From: Pseudomonadales bacterium
GTDB taxonomy: Bacteria; Pseudomonadota; Gammaproteobacteria; Pseudomonadales; Pseudohongiellaceae
Direction of reading: 5' to 3'
Length of the DNA: 64,000 nucleotides
NCBI GenBank assembly: GCA_022819645.1
Contig: JAJEGU010000017.1
Coordinates: 1-64,000 of the forward strand
Shown piece by piece: positions 55,098-62,864 of the stretch; within the stretch, counting starts at the first letter, position 1; the number at the start of each line of letters is the position of its first letter. The position numbers and the translations under genes are program-made. The notes beneath the pieces were generated by a model. The model saw only the letters and a program-made list of their open reading frames with translations, was not told the origin of the DNA and searched no databases.

Positions 55098-55119
55098 CTA
55101 ACGGAGCCACCCGCAGCCT

Positions 55120-55158
55120 GTCATTCTGCGCGTAGCGAAGCGAAGTCGCGGAATCTCC
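55120..55158 (+). repeat. Dispersed GTCATTCTGCGCG repeat
   Basis: GTCATTCTGCGCGTAGCGAA, continuing GCGAAGTCGCGGAATCTCC, is identical over 38 bases to 20704-20741. It lies 22 bases after the propeller gene. Confidence 0.9.
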
Positions 55159-55226
55159 ATCTGGCGGCAGTAATATCCGTGTCTGCGACGAAGAATGGAA
55201 TTTGCCTCATGGGAAAGGAAACAGCC

Positions 55227-55652
55227 ATGAATCAGCAGGAAATGACCGGCCAATGCCACTGTGGTGCGGTCAGATACACCGGCCTGGGAGGGCTGCCGGA
55301 GCTGCATTGCTGCCATTGCCCTGATTGCATGCGCTGGGCCGGCGGCCCCTTGATGGCCCTGCACTTCAGCGGTGGCATCCAGCTCGCCGACTCCGATGCG
55401 GTAAACTGGTATCAGAGTTCGGATTGGGCCGAACGCGGCTCATGCAAGACTTGCGGCTCGGCCCTGTTCTGGCGGCTCCGGGCCGACCACGGCATGATCG
55501 TGGTAACCGCCGGCAGTCTCGACCGGCAAGAGGAACTCAGCCCCATAGCCGAGCATATCTACATCGACGCCAAACCCCCCTGGTACGATTTCTCCGGCGA
55601 CGCCCCCTGCCTGACCAGCACCGAGTTCCTGGCGCGGATTCAGGGGCGGTAG
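55227..55652 (+). CDS. GFA/Mss4-fold zinc protein
   Basis: This 141-residue protein has the GFA family Cys set: GQCHCGAVRY, CCHCPDCMRWAG and CKTCGSALFWR, which bind zinc. The family was named after glutathione-dependent formaldehyde-activating enzyme, but most members have unknown activity. ATG 55227 has GGAAAGGAAACAGCC; an in-frame ATG at 55209 is an alternative. It is the last GC-rich gene before the AT-richer operon. Confidence 0.87.
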   Translation: MNQQEMTGQCHCGAVRYTGLGGLPELHCCHCPDCMRWAGGPLMALHFSGGIQLADSDAVNWYQSSDWAERGSCKTCGSALFWRLRADHGMIVVTAGSLDRQEELSPIAEHIYIDAKPPWYDFSGDAPCLTSTEFLARIQGR

Positions 55653-55718
55653 CTCCCTTTATTTGTTCGATGGTCGAAAACTATTCTACGGATTATCCCA
55701 GATTCCCCAAAACTTATT

Positions 55719-56756
55719 CTAACCTGCAGAAAACGCAGCAAGGTTAGATGATGGTTGAGCATTTACACCGCTTAATCTACTATTTATTGCGACGGCCAGA
55801 TCTACTCCGTGACTTCTAGTATTGTCTGTTACAACTTCTTTTGCACCGGTCGCTCTTATGTATTCGATTGTTCCTTGAAAATCGGCATGATTTGTGAGGG
55901 CCACACCGTACGCTCGCTCAGAATATTCGATAACTGGATTGTCAGGTTTTGTCATAAAAGCGCTACAGGAAATGCTAGTGCCTTCAATAAGCTCATTTTT
56001 AAATCCATCTCCCTTCGCGTATAGTCGAATATACGACTGACTGCCGAGTGCACTGCTGCAACTGCGCCCCTCTTCGGAATCAATTCTTATAATCGACCCT
56101 GCGGCGAAGCCATTCGCTTGATACACTGAAATCTCACCGATCAATCTCTTGCTTGCCAAGATCGGGACTCCAACGTTAGTAGATAACACATGCAGTACCC
56201 GTTCTATTGTTCCCCTGTGAGCGTGGATATGCACGGAACCTTGACGAAGTCGTTGACTAACTATTTCCAGCAGACGACTCTCGGCCTCTCCCTGTGTGTA
56301 TTTTCGAACGCTTGCTGGGTTGCCATAGGTGCTATCTACAACAAGTTCGTCGACCTGAATTACCTCACTAATGGGCCAAGCGAAGTCTCCAGAATACCCA
56401 CAACGAAATCCATCCGAATGCTCCACTACGACTTGGGCAGAACCTAGCATGTGACCCGACCTTACGAAAGTGAGCTTTGTTCCGTCTTCCAAATCCTTTA
56501 CTGTGTTCCAATTAAGTGAGATAACGTTATCTCGATATTCAATATCTGCATTAAGTTCTGAAATCAGAAGAGCTTTAGTCTCTTGGCTCATGAAGATATC
56601 TTGCATGCCCTTACTTTTATTAAAATCTCCCATGTGATCGTCATGAATATGGGTTTGTACACGATAATCAAAACCTTCCGCGTACCCATCGCAGACTGTG
56701 TTAGATCCAAGGCGCACCGCGCCATTATGAAATACGTCAACTCTTGGAAGAGCCAT
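55719..56756 (-). CDS. MBL-fold nuclease-like protein
   Basis: This 345-residue metallo-beta-lactamase-fold protein has HIHDDHMGDF (metal site HxHxDH), 'GHMLGSAQVVVEHSDGFRCGYSGDFAW' and a late His in ALTNHADFQGTIEYIRATGA. The order resembles beta-CASP/SNM1-type nucleases and the DNA-ligase-associated exonuclease group; no ligase gene is adjacent. It is the last gene of the six-gene dndC operon and overlaps the upstream gene by 20 bases. Likely DNA or RNA end-processing; activity unproven. Confidence 0.75.
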   Translation of the reverse strand: MALPRVDVFHNGAVRLGSNTVCDGYAEGFDYRVQTHIHDDHMGDFNKSKGMQDIFMSQETKALLISELNADIEYRDNVISLNWNTVKDLEDGTKLTFVRSGHMLGSAQVVVEHSDGFRCGYSGDFAWPISEVIQVDELVVDSTYGNPASVRKYTQGEAESRLLEIVSQRLRQGSVHIHAHRGTIERVLHVLSTNVGVPILASKRLIGEISVYQANGFAAGSIIRIDSEEGRSCSSALGSQSYIRLYAKGDGFKNELIEGTSISCSAFMTKPDNPVIEYSERAYGVALTNHADFQGTIEYIRATGAKEVVTDNTRSHGVDLAVAINSRLSGVNAQPSSNLAAFSAG

Positions 56757-57459
56757 TCTCCAATGCCTTTGATACGAGCGCTCTGATCCTTGCCTCTATG
56801 TTCTCTTTACCAATTTCTTGCATTGAGGCATTAAAGTCCTCGTTACCCACTAGCGTGAACAGCTTGGGGCCGAGACGACCGGTCGCGCTTCTAATTCCCA
56901 AACTTCCTATAGCGGAAGCCAATATTGAATCTCTGGCAGTTTGAGTCTTTTTTTCCAGGATTGATTCAATTTCCAATGGCATTGAGCCAACAAATACAAA
57001 TCGCCTTGTAATTTGTTGACGCATGCCAAGTACTTCTTTAATGCATTGACTGATAGTCTTGTCGGATCGATTTCTGAGTTGCGCTACCTGTCGCACTTCC
57101 TTACTGGTTAATCCATCTGACAAAATGGAGTCAGCAACAACTCGCTGCTCTTCAGCATTGCTTAGTTTTGTTAACTCGAATGCGGCTGTGAACCCAATGA
57201 AACTTTTTTCTGCCCCCCATCCGACCAGATGCTGCAAATCCTTCGGAAGTCTGAGGATGGTCAAGAACCTCCCTATGTGTCCTGTACCATCAAGTTGGAC
57301 CGCTTCAGCACAGTCTTGAAGAGACGTACCCTCCGAGCGAGCCCTTCTCAGAAGTTCTCCTACCTCAATCGGAGACAGAGGTCGACCCTTCTTGTGTGTC
57401 CCATATCCCAGGGACATACGAAGACGGCCAAGCTCCAATGCGTTTAACCCAGCGAGCAT
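56737..57459 (-). CDS. ParB-HTH-like protein of the dndC operon
   Basis: This 240-residue protein has no confident family assignment. Its middle (GTGHIGRFLTILRLPKDLQH, 'GFTAAFELTKLSNAEEQRVVADSILSDGLTSKEVRQV') resembles the helix-turn-helix region that follows the ParB/Srx domain in ParB proteins, but the Srx domain is absent. It is three bases after parB and overlaps the MBL gene, so it is a stable part of the operon. It may pair with the ParB protein as a DNA-binding partner. Confidence 0.6.
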   Translation of the reverse strand: MLAGLNALELGRLRMSLGYGTHKKGRPLSPIEVGELLRRARSEGTSLQDCAEAVQLDGTGHIGRFLTILRLPKDLQHLVGWGAEKSFIGFTAAFELTKLSNAEEQRVVADSILSDGLTSKEVRQVAQLRNRSDKTISQCIKEVLGMRQQITRRFVFVGSMPLEIESILEKKTQTARDSILASAIGSLGIRSATGRLGPKLFTLVGNEDFNASMQEIGKENIEARIRALVSKALENGSSKS

Positions 57460-57462
57460 GTT

Positions 57463-58290
57463 CTAGCTTCCTTCCAAGGCTCCACGATCAATTAGAGCCT
57501 CTTCGATAAGAAGGGCCACTGTGTCGTCTTGGTTTTCTCCTTCTTCCTTAGCTACGTGCTGAATCGCTGCATGAACGTCATTAGATACGGTTGCGATGAC
57601 CTGTACTACTTTAGATCCTGTTTTTGCTCGTTCAATTAAATCGTCCATATTGCGTTCAGGGTGGTCTTTGATTTCCTTATGTACCTTTTTCCGCTGAGCC
57701 CCGGTCATCGGAGCCATCTCCTTGGCTAATTGGACGGCGACCTCCGGGTCAGCCACTCCTTCGTCATCGCTCGCGGCATCTTGTGCCTTTACCGCTACAT
57801 TAACATCAACGACGCCATCATCAACCAGACCTTTCAGTTCTTTGAGCAGCCTTGGGTACTTAATGTACTCCGAGATCTTTTTTCTAGGAAGACCTGTGGT
57901 TTCTGCTACCTCTTTGACAGTCCCATAGATGTTGTATAGAAACAGAACCCCATCCTTCAGCTCTTTCCCAGTAAGCTGCCGCCGAATCAAGTTTTCCGTA
58001 ATGGAGATTGCTTTCGCTTGCCCCTCATCAACCCGCTCATTCAGGACAGCTGCTGAAATTTTTTCCCTTCTCAAGTGCTTATGAGCTAAAAAGCGTCTTT
58101 GCCCAGTTAGAATCTCCCACTTACCCTCCTCCCGAGCTTGGCATACAACGATGGGTTGCAAAAGACCCTGAGTTTCAATGCTTCTCGCTAATTCATCTAT
58201 CTCTTGCCCAGTGTTTTGTGTCCGCACTTGCCCCTTGCTAATCGTTAAATCATCCAAGGGAATTTCTCGATATTCCACAATTCTTGCCAT
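57463..58290 (-). CDS. ParB/Srx-domain DNA-binding protein
   Basis: This 275-residue protein has an N-terminal ParB/sulfiredoxin fold (REIPLDDLTISKGQVRTQNT, 'IDELARSIETQGLLQPIVV', ILTGQRRFLAHKHL, which holds the nucleotide-binding GxRR-like stretch, then SITENLIRRQLT). An HTH segment follows (GTVKEVAETTGLPRKKISEY). No ParA is next to it. In a dndC operon it is more likely a nucleotide-dependent DNA clamp or regulator of the system than a chromosome partition protein. Confidence 0.83.
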   Translation of the reverse strand: MARIVEYREIPLDDLTISKGQVRTQNTGQEIDELARSIETQGLLQPIVVCQAREEGKWEILTGQRRFLAHKHLRREKISAAVLNERVDEGQAKAISITENLIRRQLTGKELKDGVLFLYNIYGTVKEVAETTGLPRKKISEYIKYPRLLKELKGLVDDGVVDVNVAVKAQDAASDDEGVADPEVAVQLAKEMAPMTGAQRKKVHKEIKDHPERNMDDLIERAKTGSKVVQVIATVSNDVHAAIQHVAKEEGENQDDTVALLIEEALIDRGALEGS

Positions 58291-58312
58291 TTCCTTAATT
58301 TTCCTCCTGCCT

Positions 58313-59686
58313 TTATCTAGTTGAATTCTTGTTGCTTTCGGAGAGTTCGAGGATATACATCAATTCCTGTACAGAGAAACCGCGAGAGGCAGTTTCGACG
58401 GATTCAACGATATCGCTGAACATTTCCTCTTTGCTGTCCAAGATGCTGGCAATACGCTCTTCTATCGTATCCACCACCAAAAATCGGACAACGTGCAGCG
58501 GCTCTTCCCGATCAAACCTATGTGCACGGTAGATCGCCTGCATCTCCACAGCCGGGTTCCACCACCTGTCAAACATTACAACGTGTGACGCCTCTCCCAG
58601 ATTCAATCCCACGCCGCCGGCCCTCAACGAGATGAATAGGATTCGGGGCGACCTGCCAGTTTTGAACCTCTCTATGGCCTTCTGCCGCTCTTCGATCGAC
58701 ATTGAGCCCGTGATGAAGTCACCAGGAATGCTAATCCGCGCAGACAGCCATTTCAAGGTCTCGACAAACTGCGAGAAAACCAGTACGCGAGCATTTGATC
58801 CCATACCTTCACAAACCTCCTTCAAAGCGTTCAGCTTGGAAGATGTATTGCTATCAGAGTCAAAATTGCACGCAATCTTAAGGCGAGTTATTAGCCCAAG
58901 CAGTACAGCCGCGGAACTCTCGGCGTCCGTCCTGACAGCATCCTCCCGCTCCACCCACAGTTGATCGTAGGCAATTCTCTGTGGAGATAGTAGTTCCAGC
59001 TTCATGTCCTGAATGATGACTGGAGGAAGTTCCCCCCTGACGTCCCGTTTCCTCCTACGCAGCATCATTGAACTTAGCGTCGACGAAAGTTTCGTACTTG
59101 AGAGGTCCGTTGGTAAGGATGGATTTAGAAATCCAAGAATTGAGGCCACATCATCCGGGTCGTTCTCAAGCGGAGTGGCGGATAGGGCCCAGGAGTGCTT
59201 TCGCGGGAGTAAACGGCAGGCCAATGATGTTCGGGAGTACTTGTTCTTTATGCGCTGGGCTTCGTCAAGAATTACTATATCGAACGTGTCGGCTGGAATC
59301 CGATCAAGACCATCTTGTCTGATCTGTTCATAGGAGCCAACCAACACTGGAACAGGAAGCATATACAGAGCTTCACGGTCACGAATATCTCCTTGCAGAC
59401 GTCGAACCGCAAGGGATGGTGCCCAAATATCCAGTTCCGCCATCCAGTTGGTAATCAACGATGCAGGGGCAACGATGAGTGAACGCCTGATATCATTCTT
59501 CGCGTTCAGCAAGAGGGCCAGGGCGACTGAGGCCTGGACCGTCTTGCCCAATCCCATTTCGTCAGCAAGTAGCGCTGCGTTTGAGCGAAAGAGGAAGGAC
59601 ACACCCTCCCATTGGTAATCATGCAATCTACTCGGGACACCGAGCATGTCCTCAGCCTGGTGTCGAAGTTCCAATGTTTCGTTCAT
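58313..59686 (-). CDS. SNF2-family helicase/translocase
   Basis: This 457-residue superfamily 2 ATPase has LLADEMGLGKTVQASVALAL (motif I), VILDEAQRIKNKYSRT (motif II DEAQ), LSATPLEN (III), 'VLVFSQFVETLKWL' (IV), ISLRAGGVGLNLGEASHVVM (V) and QAIYRAHRFDREEP (VI). It is compact, with no added domains. Such translocases remodel protein-DNA complexes or power DNA-targeting defence systems. It lies 21 bases after the DUF262 gene. Confidence 0.9.
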   Translation of the reverse strand: MNETLELRHQAEDMLGVPSRLHDYQWEGVSFLFRSNAALLADEMGLGKTVQASVALALLLNAKNDIRRSLIVAPASLITNWMAELDIWAPSLAVRRLQGDIRDREALYMLPVPVLVGSYEQIRQDGLDRIPADTFDIVILDEAQRIKNKYSRTSLACRLLPRKHSWALSATPLENDPDDVASILGFLNPSLPTDLSSTKLSSTLSSMMLRRRKRDVRGELPPVIIQDMKLELLSPQRIAYDQLWVEREDAVRTDAESSAAVLLGLITRLKIACNFDSDSNTSSKLNALKEVCEGMGSNARVLVFSQFVETLKWLSARISIPGDFITGSMSIEERQKAIERFKTGRSPRILFISLRAGGVGLNLGEASHVVMFDRWWNPAVEMQAIYRAHRFDREEPLHVVRFLVVDTIEERIASILDSKEEMFSDIVESVETASRGFSVQELMYILELSESNKNSTR

Positions 59687-59707
59687 CCGACCGGGCTCTA
59701 TAGGTAG

Positions 59708-61474
59708 CTACGCTTTACTTGGTGAAAATTGCCAAACTGATGCCGCCTCCTTTGCAAGTGCCCTAGATCTCTTTTCGATGACCTTTGGCGTCCATTCGTC
59801 GTGGCTCTCAGCGACCATTCTCGGCATGCGCAATGTACTGTTTTTGTACAACTGCGCCTTGGCCAAAAAACTTTTGTTAAATTCGTCGCTCGACCGATTT
59901 TCCCTTTTTGTCAGAATCACCATGTTGCCGGTGCGATAGATGCATTCCTTCGCACTTTCTTCCGAAAATGCCTTCCAATCAGACCAATGTTGATCGGATT
60001 GCGGTAGTACATGCTCGACGGTACAGTGATCTCGCCTCAAAATCTCAGAGCCAACTTGAAGTTTGGAGTTGATTCCGAATAGGAATCGTAGTGCTTTAGC
60101 GTTAGTACGTATTTCCATTTCAGTCATACGACGAATAAATCTCGTATTATCAATAACATCAAATTCGTCCGTTCCGGCAAGTTCCTCATAGATATCGAGC
60201 GATTGCAAATCAGTTCCCCTGAAGACGTCCATGGCAATATTGGAGAACGCTGCTTCAAACTTGGAAGGCTCGAACTTCGAGGCCACGAAAGTCGTCCTCA
60301 TCACGAATGAAGCCAGATTTTTCAGACTGCGAGCAACCACCAAGCCAACCTTACGTTTCGTCTCCTTATCCTTTTCTTCAAGAAATCGATGCAGCAGAGA
60401 AAACACCAAGGGCTGGGTCACCTTATAGTCCTTGAGTTCGCCGAGCAACACAGTCACGTCCCTATAGCCAGTGATCTTGGGAAGGTTTGTATTTAGTGCC
60501 GCATCCGGTCTCGAAGACGTGAGGGTCCGAAACAGTTGCATACTATCTTGCTTTCCCAAGCCAGCAATGAGTCGAAACACGTAACTTGGTGGATCATTTT
60601 GTCCAGCAGCCCTTTCTACCTTTTGCCTGACTTCCCTATAAAATCTGTTTTTTTGTAGATATCCATACTTGCATTGCAAATAGCATCGGAAATAGTCCTG
60701 CACATTGCTTGGCCCAAGAACTACAGCCGGAGACTCTAGTCTTTCGTGGATAGTTTCCCGTCGGTTAGGGTCTTCCTGATCAGAAAAATACGAATACAAT
60801 CGGTTACGGATCAAATCGACATCGTCGAGAGGTTTGCCACGGGCATTAAGCGATTCAAATACTGAATTCGCATCTACATCACCGGGCACTTCGAGTACCG
60901 ACACTTCAACCTTTTGCATGACAAAATCTGAAAAGCTTTCAATTGCTCCTCGATCCATTGCTCCCACAAAAATATCGATTACGTCCCACGCGGAGGTGAG
61001 CGCTCCATTAGTTCCAATGTCGTGACCTCGAATTAACTGCTGATAAGTGGATTTGTTTCGTCTTGGCGGTTCAATTCTTGGCTTGTACTTGGCGGCATCA
61101 GCTAACTTGAGAATGTGGTAGTCAGGCTCGTCAAACAAGGCACGTAATCCGCGAGTCTCTCGTGCATTATCTGGAGGCAGCATCTTTTCGAAACGGCGGC
61201 AAAGAGCTGCGATCAGTAACGAAAGAGTAATGAGCCGTTGCTGGCCGTCATTGATTCTCAGGGAAGTCATCAAGTTTGAGCTGACCAACATTATCGAACC
61301 AACGAAATAGCATGCTTTATCGGCTTCGACCGCGTCGTGCAGATCTGTCAGCAGTTCGCCAACCTGCTCTTCGGCCCAATCGTAGTAGCGCTGATGCCAA
61401 GGTACGGTAAAGCATCCCGAACATAGGACTTCTGATACGAGGCGAACCTCGGAAGCGATCTTTGTCTTGCTCAA
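59708..61474 (-). CDS. DUF262-DUF1524 protein (GmrSD/SspE-like effector)
   Basis: This 588-residue protein has an N-terminal DUF262 domain with INDGQQRLITLSLLIAALC (NTP-binding DGQQR motif) and FESLNARGKPLDDVDLIRNR, and a C-terminal DUF1524 HNH-type nuclease with HCTVEHVLPQSD. This is the architecture of GmrSD type IV restriction enzymes and of SspE, the effector that senses phosphorothioate DNA. Following dndC by 23 bases, an SspE-like role is a strong inference. Confidence 0.85.
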   Translation of the reverse strand: MSKTKIASEVRLVSEVLCSGCFTVPWHQRYYDWAEEQVGELLTDLHDAVEADKACYFVGSIMLVSSNLMTSLRINDGQQRLITLSLLIAALCRRFEKMLPPDNARETRGLRALFDEPDYHILKLADAAKYKPRIEPPRRNKSTYQQLIRGHDIGTNGALTSAWDVIDIFVGAMDRGAIESFSDFVMQKVEVSVLEVPGDVDANSVFESLNARGKPLDDVDLIRNRLYSYFSDQEDPNRRETIHERLESPAVVLGPSNVQDYFRCYLQCKYGYLQKNRFYREVRQKVERAAGQNDPPSYVFRLIAGLGKQDSMQLFRTLTSSRPDAALNTNLPKITGYRDVTVLLGELKDYKVTQPLVFSLLHRFLEEKDKETKRKVGLVVARSLKNLASFVMRTTFVASKFEPSKFEAAFSNIAMDVFRGTDLQSLDIYEELAGTDEFDVIDNTRFIRRMTEMEIRTNAKALRFLFGINSKLQVGSEILRRDHCTVEHVLPQSDQHWSDWKAFSEESAKECIYRTGNMVILTKRENRSSDEFNKSFLAKAQLYKNSTLRMPRMVAESHDEWTPKVIEKRSRALAKEAASVWQFSPSKA

Positions 61475-61497
61475 GGGATCGTCCTTGTCAATAGTAG

Positions 61498-62661
61498 TTA
61501 AACAACGGCTTCAAGGCTGCGATGCAATGCCTGACGGGCATCTTCTTTGATCTGGTCTCTCCACCACACGTCTTCGATACAATCGATTTCTGCCGGCAAA
61601 ATCAGTGGTTCACCAATCTCAGATTCCAGCTCCCGCAGCTTGTTGAGAATCAGTTTGCGAACCTCGAGTTTGAATGGCCCCAGGATCGGACTCCCATCCT
61701 CGCGATGTTCAACGTTCCCATTCCGCCGCACAGGCAATCGATTGCTCTTGTCTTCCCGAAGTTCCAGCAGCCATTCCCTGAAATCGAACAGCGCTTCCAG
61801 CTTTTCCGTCTCACCGTGGCCGGAGTCTATCAGCCCTTTAAGACTTCGGTCCTTTTGGACAACGGTGCATGTCCAGCAGCCAAATCGTGGAGATGTGCTG
61901 CCGCAGGAAGGCGCCTGTTCCTTCGTGACGACCAAAGGACACTCCCCACCTCCTGCATTGCGATACAAGGTAATCAAGCGCCGATGGGTGCCGCCCCATG
62001 GCGGACTCCGCTGCATGAGTGTCATCCAGACATCGTTATCCTCCAAGTCAGCCAGCGGGGCGAACATCTGACAGCCCTCCACCAGTCCTTGCGGATTCAA
62101 TTTCTGGGCAGAAACTCCTCGATTATTCATCGCACGTCGGCGATTGTCGGACTCCGCTCGCCTCGTGCCGATCAGCAAAATCGCACCGCCGAATTCCTGC
62201 GTAAGTCGAAGGATCAGCTTGTTTGTGGGCGAAATCTTCATCCTGTCGGTACACCAGCGAAAATTCCTGGTGGGCGGTATGTAGCCTCTCCCTATGACGC
62301 TGACCCAGAATGTCTGGTCAATGCATGGCGTCGTAACTTCCGTTGAAATGGGTAGGCCCGACTGGACCCCCGCCAGATCGATTTGCTGCAACGAGTTTCG
62401 GAGATGACTGATAACGAGGGGCGATTCCACCAGCGTATCGTTCCCAACGACCAGAATCTGGCGGCTTCGCTGCTTCAGCGGCAGGTCCGCGATGACCTCC
62501 CAGACCAGTTGGAGCAGCAATGTGGAATCCTTGCCGCCCGAGTACGCGACGATCCACGGGTAGCTGTGCGCCTCCAGATATTCGGAGCGAATGACATCCT
62601 TTATGTCCTCAAGGCGTGAGGGCAGGCCTGAGATCGAAATTGCGAGGGCAGGCTCTGTCAT
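61498..62661 (-). CDS. dndC: DNA phosphorothioation sulfurtransferase DndC
   Basis: This 387-residue PAPS-reductase-superfamily protein has the PP-loop VAYSGGKDSTLLLQLVW, 'RNFRWCTDRMKISPTNKLI', IGTRRAESDNRRRAMNNR and the Cys cluster CGSTSPRFGCWTCTVVQKDR, which match DndC rather than sulfate-assimilation CysH. DndC adenylates the DNA backbone and carries the sulfur via an iron-sulfur cluster. The track start at 62679 is TTG; ATG 62661 is preferred, with GGAG upstream. It heads the operon. No dndA, dndB, dndD or dndE is near. Confidence 0.88.
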   Translation of the reverse strand: MTEPALAISISGLPSRLEDIKDVIRSEYLEAHSYPWIVAYSGGKDSTLLLQLVWEVIADLPLKQRSRQILVVGNDTLVESPLVISHLRNSLQQIDLAGVQSGLPISTEVTTPCIDQTFWVSVIGRGYIPPTRNFRWCTDRMKISPTNKLILRLTQEFGGAILLIGTRRAESDNRRRAMNNRGVSAQKLNPQGLVEGCQMFAPLADLEDNDVWMTLMQRSPPWGGTHRRLITLYRNAGGGECPLVVTKEQAPSCGSTSPRFGCWTCTVVQKDRSLKGLIDSGHGETEKLEALFDFREWLLELREDKSNRLPVRRNGNVEHREDGSPILGPFKLEVRKLILNKLRELESEIGEPLILPAEIDCIEDVWWRDQIKEDARQALHRSLEAVV

Positions 62662-62687
62662 ATTTTGTTGCGGCTCCAATCCGCGAG

Positions 62688-62716
62688 ATTATCGGAGAAT
62701 CTGGGTGTGCTAACAA
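62688..62716 (-). promoter_or_regulatory. Sigma-70-type promoter of dndC operon
   Basis: On the minus strand TTGTTA (62716-62711), 17 bases, then GATAAT (62693-62688). Spacing is ideal and both hexamers are close to consensus. It lies 27 bases before the ATG of dndC. Confidence 0.65.
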
Positions 62717-62765
62717 ATGGTATACGCATGTTCACCGATTAGCCAAGAAAAGGCGGAAAATACTC

Positions 62766-62791
62766 GACCCGTCTCCGAGGAGTGACGGGTC
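62766..62791. other. Stem-loop between dndC operon and symporter gene
   Basis: GACCCGTC and GACGGGTC form an 8-bp perfect stem with a 10-base loop. No T-run follows on either strand. It could be a weak terminator of the symporter gene or a processing hairpin. The rest of 62717-62864 holds nothing recognisable. Confidence 0.35.
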
Positions 62792-62864
62792 GCGCCGGGC
62801 TCATCCGAATTGCTGTTGCATACAGATGTTGATCGGCCCATACCCCGATTACAACAGGAATCAG

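What the first reader, a model, noticed from the sequence alone, without database searches (positions are those of the whole stretch)
56737..58290. ParB plus a second ParB-HTH-like protein in a defence-type operon
A ParB/Srx protein is followed after three bases by a protein resembling only the ParB HTH half, with no ParA or parS-like array. ParB domains are CTP-dependent clamps; two partners in a sulfur-marking operon suggest a sliding or spreading DNA sensor. The PAPS-reductase plus ParB pairing is also known from the IbrA/IbrB regulators.
Basis: inference. Interest (0 to 1): 0.5.

Follow-up and report, generated by a model that had tools for sequence, protein, structure and literature searches.

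The report
ParB pair in DNA-sulfur defence cassette
A bacterial gene cassette that probably marks DNA with sulfur carries a two-part version of the chromosome-clamp protein ParB next to nuclease genes, and relatives in several bacterial phyla suggest that this pair is a new kind of DNA-gripping adaptor for defence nucleases.

Summary
The 240-residue protein (P2, 56737-57459) has a ParB/Noc-type DNA-binding domain without the ParB CTPase domain, plus a conserved alpha/beta C-terminal domain, and follows a CTPase-type ParB. Both sit in a six-gene cassette: DndC, GmrSD (DUF262-DUF1524), SNF2, ParB, P2, beta-CASP metallo-beta-lactamase (MBL). Eleven other loci from several phyla keep this order; one more has DndC-GmrSD divergent. 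The window's genome has no DndD or DndE. The ParB-P2-MBL-SNF2 part also lies beside a complete DndABCDE set (L038/L060) and directly after DndE (L009). A third form (L062) is ParB, P2, PD-(D/E)XK nuclease, PAPS reductase. So a nuclease gene directly follows P2 in all three contexts, but its type changes. All 15 cassette-type ParBs examined read GQRR where 19 of 22 comparison ParBs read GERR: the natural equivalent of B. subtilis ParB E78Q, which closes its clamp but does not hydrolyse CTP. Best reading: ParB-P2 is a long-lived DNA clamp/adaptor that brings nucleases to DNA in phosphorothioate-type defence. Parts and linkage are shown; mechanism is inferred. No description was found in the papers searched.

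The parts
61498..62679 (-). DndC: PP-loop/PAPS-reductase-type DNA phosphorothioation sulfurtransferase, 393 aa
   Evidence: TIGR03183 334.7 bits, cut-off 290.4; SGGKDST motif and Cys143/247/259/268/271 shared with a canonical DndC that sits beside DndD and DndE
59708..61474 (-). GmrSD-type DUF262-DUF1524 nuclease, 588 aa, nearest solved relative DndI
   Evidence: PF03235 and PF07510 over cut-off; PADLOC HEC-06 E 1.9e-74; DndI 9JFL E 6e-23, SspE next; DGQQR motif conserved; PT-sensing Tyr25 of DndI is His27 here
58313..59686 (-). SNF2-family ATPase, 457 aa
   Evidence: PF00176 E 1e-42 and PF00271 E 1e-22; Walker A (DEMGLGKT) invariant and DEAQ conserved
57463..58290 (-). CTPase-type ParB (N-domain, HTH, C-terminal helices), 275 aa, with GQRR in place of GERR
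   Evidence: PF02195 E 5e-16; Noc/ParB CTPase structures E to 2e-16; GQRR and ENLIRR motifs
56737..57459 (-). P2: ParB HTH-only protein with a conserved C-terminal alpha/beta domain, 240 aa
55719..56756 (-). Metallo-beta-lactamase/beta-CASP (SNM1-like) nuclease, 345 aa; start overlaps the P2 gene by 20 nt
   Evidence: TIGR04122 E 7e-18, below its equivalog cut-off; aCPSF1-type and SNM1A structures E 5e-10 and 2e-6; HxHxDH, His102, Asp124, Asp141, His290 invariant
62714..62729 (-). Putative promoter/operator core ATGCGTATACCATTTG upstream of DndC
   Evidence: invariant in four related loci within a diverged leader; function not tested

Best explanation
The cassette is a phosphorothioate-type DNA modification/defence system. 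Its ParB and P2 form a two-part DNA-binding adaptor: ParB supplies a CTP-gated clamp, P2 a second ParB-type DNA-binding domain plus a C-terminal domain that may recruit the nuclease encoded directly downstream. ParB carries a natural E-to-Q change at a CTP-hydrolysis residue, so the closed clamp should be long-lived; the SNF2 motor could move or remove it. The adaptor and SNF2 would survey DNA and bring the beta-CASP nuclease, alongside GmrSD, to DNA lacking the host's sulfur mark, which DndC (with DndA or housekeeping IscS) would make. Shown: gene content, order, conservation, fold of P2's DNA-binding domain, motif states, linkage to DndC, DndCDE or a PAPS reductase. Inferred: complex formation, clamp behaviour, nuclease recruitment, sulfur sensing, anti-phage activity.
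For: The same six-gene order is in 11 other loci from several phyla. Dadabacteria and Rhodothermaceae copies are 63-81% identical in all six genes, and between-gene identity correlations are 0.78-0.97, so the cassette travels as a unit. SNF2-MBL-P2-ParB also lies beside complete DndABCDE plus GmrSD and, in L009, SNF2-ParB-P2-MBL directly follows DndE: it is an add-on module of sulfur systems. In L062 ParB-P2 is followed 2 nt later by a PD-(D/E)XK nuclease and then a PAPS reductase: the nuclease changes while ParB-P2 stays. P2 homology between forms: hhalign E 1.8e-8, 95%. GQRR in 15 of 15 cassette-type ParBs against GERR in 19 of 22 comparators and GQRR in none of these. B. subtilis ParB E78Q supports clamp closure but not CTP hydrolysis (PMC8494293). 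GmrSD is closest to the PT-sensing nucleases DndI and SspE.
Against: No experiment shows sulfur in this DNA or phage resistance. GmrSD has His where DndI uses Tyr25 to sense sulfur, so its PT sensing may differ. No DndD over cut-off in any of 14 genomes searched and no DndE in 11 of 12, so it is unclear how DndC would be directed; ParB-P2 could serve that step instead. P2 does not align significantly with the ParB of its own operon in profile comparison (E 0.088), and pairing between them is assumed from gene order. GERR is not universal among ParB-like proteins (3 of 22 comparators differ). The nuclease-recruiting role of P2's C-terminal domain rests on gene order only.
Confidence: 0.45

Rival explanations
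1. ParB-P2 (with SNF2) is the modification-side DNA-scanning platform that guides DndC to its sites, replacing DndD-DndE.
For: The window's genome has no DndD or DndE. DndE (ribbon-helix-helix) is likewise a DNA-binding partner of the sulfur enzyme, and Ssp systems replaced DndD with another ATPase (PMC10853773).
Against: The module co-occurs with complete DndABCDE in L038/L060 and with DndE in L009, so it is not simply a replacement. In L010 DndC-GmrSD is transcribed apart from SNF2-ParB-P2-MBL.
Confidence: 0.22
2. ParB and P2 are transcription regulators of the cassette, as proposed for DndB and known for KorB.
For: Both carry HTH domains; a 16-bp element upstream of DndC is invariant in four relatives; KorB is among the structural relatives.
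Against: P2 is encoded tightly against the nuclease gene and is about as conserved as the enzymes; two conserved ParB-type regulators exceed what autoregulation needs; the pair persists across three different enzyme sets.
Confidence: 0.15
3. The cassette acts in DNA repair or quality control of sulfur-modified DNA, the MBL protein being a repair nuclease, with GmrSD the only true defence effector.
For: MBL is closest to the ligase-associated DNA-damage exonuclease family (TIGR04122) and resembles SNM1A.
Against: Patchy distribution (3 of 38 near relatives including the window; 1 of 399 in the phylum sample), lateral transfer, and a restriction-type PD-(D/E)XK nuclease in the place of MBL in L062.
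Confidence: 0.1
4. An ordinary or decayed plasmid/chromosome partition locus.
For: ParB family membership only.
Against: No ParA in the cassette, no parS excess, fixed association with sulfur and nuclease genes, no close P2 relative in plasmids, phages or viral contigs.
Confidence: 0.02

Closest known systems
IscS-DndBCDE-DndI phosphorothioate-sensing system (PMC11662687)
   Same: DndC plus a DUF262-HNH nuclease; GmrSD here is closest to DndI (9JFL, E 6e-23)
   Different: No DndB, DndD or DndE with the window cassette; extra SNF2, ParB, P2 and beta-CASP; DndI Tyr25 replaced by His
SspABCD-SspE
   Same: Sulfur enzyme with a DUF262-type effector and no DndD/DndE
   Different: DndC-type rather than SspD-type sulfur enzyme; SNF2 and ParB pair rather than SspB/SspC (which were not searched for genome-wide)
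Chromosomal ParB and Noc CTPase clamps
   Same: N-domain CTP motifs, HTH domain fold
   Different: GQRR in place of GERR; no ParA or parS; a second, CTPase-less protein P2
IbrA/IbrB
   Different: DndC passes the DndC cut-off; a second ParB-HTH protein and further genes; not compared directly here
DndB
   Same: ParB-superfamily protein in Dnd operons
   Different: Separate Pfam family (PF14072); both DndB and this ParB occur together in L060/L038

Membership tests
ParB superfamily, CTPase type (57463-58290) | ParB_N domain with CTP-binding motifs | tested here: met
   PF02195 and TIGR00180 over cut-off; QxRT, GxRR and ENLxR motifs
ParB superfamily, CTPase type (57463-58290) | Catalytic Glu of GERR needed for CTP hydrolysis | tested here: not met
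   Gln in all 15 cassette-type members
ParB HTH domain (56737-57459) | ParB/Noc DNA-binding fold | tested here: met
   Foldseek probability 1.00; profile E 2.6e-5 to Spo0J; ParB-like proteins at E to about 1e-10
ParB HTH domain (56737-57459) | Pfam PF17762 gathering score | tested here: inconclusive
   19.9 against 22.6 for the window protein, 31.8 for its L062 homologue
ParABS partition system | ParA and parS | tested here: not met
   No ParA in the cassette; parS matches at chance level
Dnd phosphorothioation system | DndC | tested here: met
   TIGR03183 over cut-off
Dnd phosphorothioation system | DndD and DndE in the genome | tested here: not met
   None in the window's genome, 98% complete
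Dnd phosphorothioation system | Phosphorothioate in DNA | not testable with these tools
   Needs LC-MS/MS
DndI/SspE PT-sensing nucleases | DUF262 DGQQR motif and HNH domain | tested here: met
DndI/SspE PT-sensing nucleases | PT-sensing Tyr (Tyr25 of DndI) | tested here: not met
   His27 in the window; Tyr in L008 and L038
IbrA/IbrB | IbrA and IbrB orthology | not tested
   no direct comparison made

The most novel reading that the evidence does not exclude
ParB-P2 is a dedicated two-subunit, hydrolysis-deficient CTP clamp that serves as a general adaptor between DNA-sulfur marking enzymes and interchangeable nucleases, a use of the ParB fold not previously described.
Probability: 0.35. Interest if true: 0.8.

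Novelty: new variant of a known kind. Interest (0 to 1): 0.62.

Why it matters
It would extend DNA-sulfur defence to a DndC system without DndD-DndE, name a nuclease-bearing add-on module for canonical Dnd systems, and give a natural test of what a ParB clamp does when it cannot hydrolyse CTP. Each step is directly testable in laboratory strains.

Tried and rejected
Partition locus: rejected (no ParA, no parS excess). P2 as an unrelated HTH: rejected by profile and fold evidence. P2 as a recent duplicate of its neighbouring ParB: profile comparison not significant, so not claimed. Phage or plasmid origin: searches of phages, plasmids and viral contigs with P2 found no close relative, nor did a viral-contig scan with MBL. 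The L035/L039 hit is an ordinary chromosomal ParB beside parA. Foldseek hits to the P2 C-terminal domain were weak and are not used. Heterodimer modelling was not available; the ParB model is of low confidence (pLDDT 71) and mainly its sequence motifs are used. Literature searches and in-text searches of PMC10853773 and PMC12839542 found no description of this gene set; subscription papers and supplements were not searchable, so prior description cannot be excluded.

Full report
What is there. On the - strand of the window, from 62679 down to 55719, six genes follow one another: DndC, GmrSD (DUF262-DUF1524), SNF2, ParB, P2 and a beta-CASP metallo-beta-lactamase, MBL. ParB and P2 are 3 bases apart, and the MBL start overlaps P2 by 20 bases. 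DndC passes the NCBI cut-off. The GmrSD protein is closest among solved structures to DndI. MBL resembles the ligase-associated exonuclease family, below its curated cut-off, with its metal and beta-CASP residues conserved.

P2. Alone, P2 scores below Pfam's ParB HTH cut-off. The family evidence is firm: the AlphaFold2 model (11 sequences, pLDDT 89) matches ParB and Noc DNA-binding domains with probability 1.00 (E about 2e-3), a profile of five diverse P2 proteins finds Spo0J at E 2.6e-5, and in genome searches the extended profile finds ParB-like proteins of 300-400 residues at E 1e-8 to 1e-10. P2 begins just before the ParB HTH, lacks the CTPase domain, and ends in a strand-helix-helix-strand-strand-helix-helix domain of unknown relation.

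Distribution. A P2 search of public genomes gave 11 loci named as Pseudomonadales, other Gammaproteobacteria, Binatia, Dehalococcoidia, Dadabacteria, Acetobacteraceae, Acidobacteria and Rhodothermaceae; genome searches added L036, L037 and L061. The six-gene order is in L001, L002, L003, L005, L006, L007, L008, L011, L036, L037 and L061; in L010 DndC-GmrSD is divergent; L004 and L009 end at contig ends. L013 and L014 appear to be the same genomes as L001 and L004. A cysteine desulfurase lies directly upstream in L006, L008, L011, L037 and L061, with family membership tested by profile for L011 and L037 only. Sampled prevalence is low: 1 of 399 genomes in the window's phylum, the window's own.

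Lateral transfer. Within the genus the usual arrangement is a symporter gene next to a lyase-like gene; in G022 the two are about 60 bases apart, whereas in the window about 7.8 kb containing a small GFA-type gene and the cassette lies between them. Dadabacteria and Rhodothermaceae copies are 63-81% identical in all six genes.

Three contexts. (i) The six-gene cassette; no DndD over cut-off in the 14 genome handles searched and no DndE in 11 of 12. (ii) With canonical Dnd: L060/L038 holds DndA, DndB, DndC (625 bits), DndD (555 bits), DndE (65.5 bits, just under cut-off), GmrSD, then SNF2, MBL, P2 and ParB; in L009 DndE (84 bits, over cut-off) ends next to SNF2-ParB-P2-MBL. (iii) L062: ParB, P2, PD-(D/E)XK nuclease, SspD/BrxP-like PAPS reductase. 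P2 of L062 is homologous to the others by profile comparison, E 1.8e-8, 95%. Context (iii) is one genome, with no second case among 98 relatives; the P2 of L038 had none among 99.

The ParB motif. In the M. xanthus ParB E93A structure (7o0n) the motif reads GARR, so E93 is the Glu of GERR. In all 15 cassette-type ParBs examined this residue is Gln. Of 22 comparison ParBs (excluding one counted twice), 19 have Glu and none Gln. In B. subtilis the same change, E78Q, removes CTP hydrolysis while clamp closing is kept (PMC8494293; that E78 is the Glu of GERR follows from G77 and R80 named there). The second catalytic Glu (B. subtilis E111) corresponds to Glu99 here and is kept (by motif alignment).

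Mechanism. The constant feature is ParB-P2 with a nuclease gene directly after P2: a beta-CASP protein in the cassette, in L009 and in L038, and a PD-(D/E)XK protein in L062. That suggests an adaptor whose DNA grip is supplied by ParB and P2 and whose payload can change. The constant enzymatic partner is a sulfur enzyme of the PAPS-reductase/DndC kind (in L009 DndE is present but the contig ends before any DndC). Whether the pair reads sulfur, guides its addition, or only loads the nuclease is not decided by sequence. Co-occurrence with complete Dnd argues against a simple replacement of DndD-DndE.

Limits. No assay was done; pairing of ParB with P2 is assumed from gene order; taxon names come from record titles; unlabelled genomes are placed only by the phylum of the search centre; collections are partial; absence of a prior description was checked only in open-access full text.

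Noticed in passing
window 55098-62864; L072: The cassette plus a GFA-type gene occupies a site that is empty in G022, where the symporter and lyase-like genes are about 60 bases apart; three other genus members (L073-L075) also have the lyase-like gene beside the symporter.
   Followed up: partly
L004 1-135: In this relative the locus starts at a contig end and ParB is homologous only from residue 104; the sequence before it is unrelated. Deletion or assembly error cannot be told apart; DndC was not found in that genome.
   Followed up: partly
L061 3180-5081: A second GmrSD gene lies divergently beside the six-gene cassette.
   Followed up: no
window 55118-55156: A 39-bp element recurs beyond the symporter (L070 3781-3819, L071 3786-3824; 92% identical).
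   Followed up: no
L063 (NZ_AP026896.1): A 4.9-Mb record listed as Aeromonas caviae plasmid pKAM479_3 carries parA-parB and what look like gidA and atp genes, so it appears to be the chromosome.
   Followed up: no
window 59708-61474: The position of DndI's PT-sensing Tyr25 is His27 in the window's GmrSD protein but Tyr in L008 and L038.
   Followed up: partly
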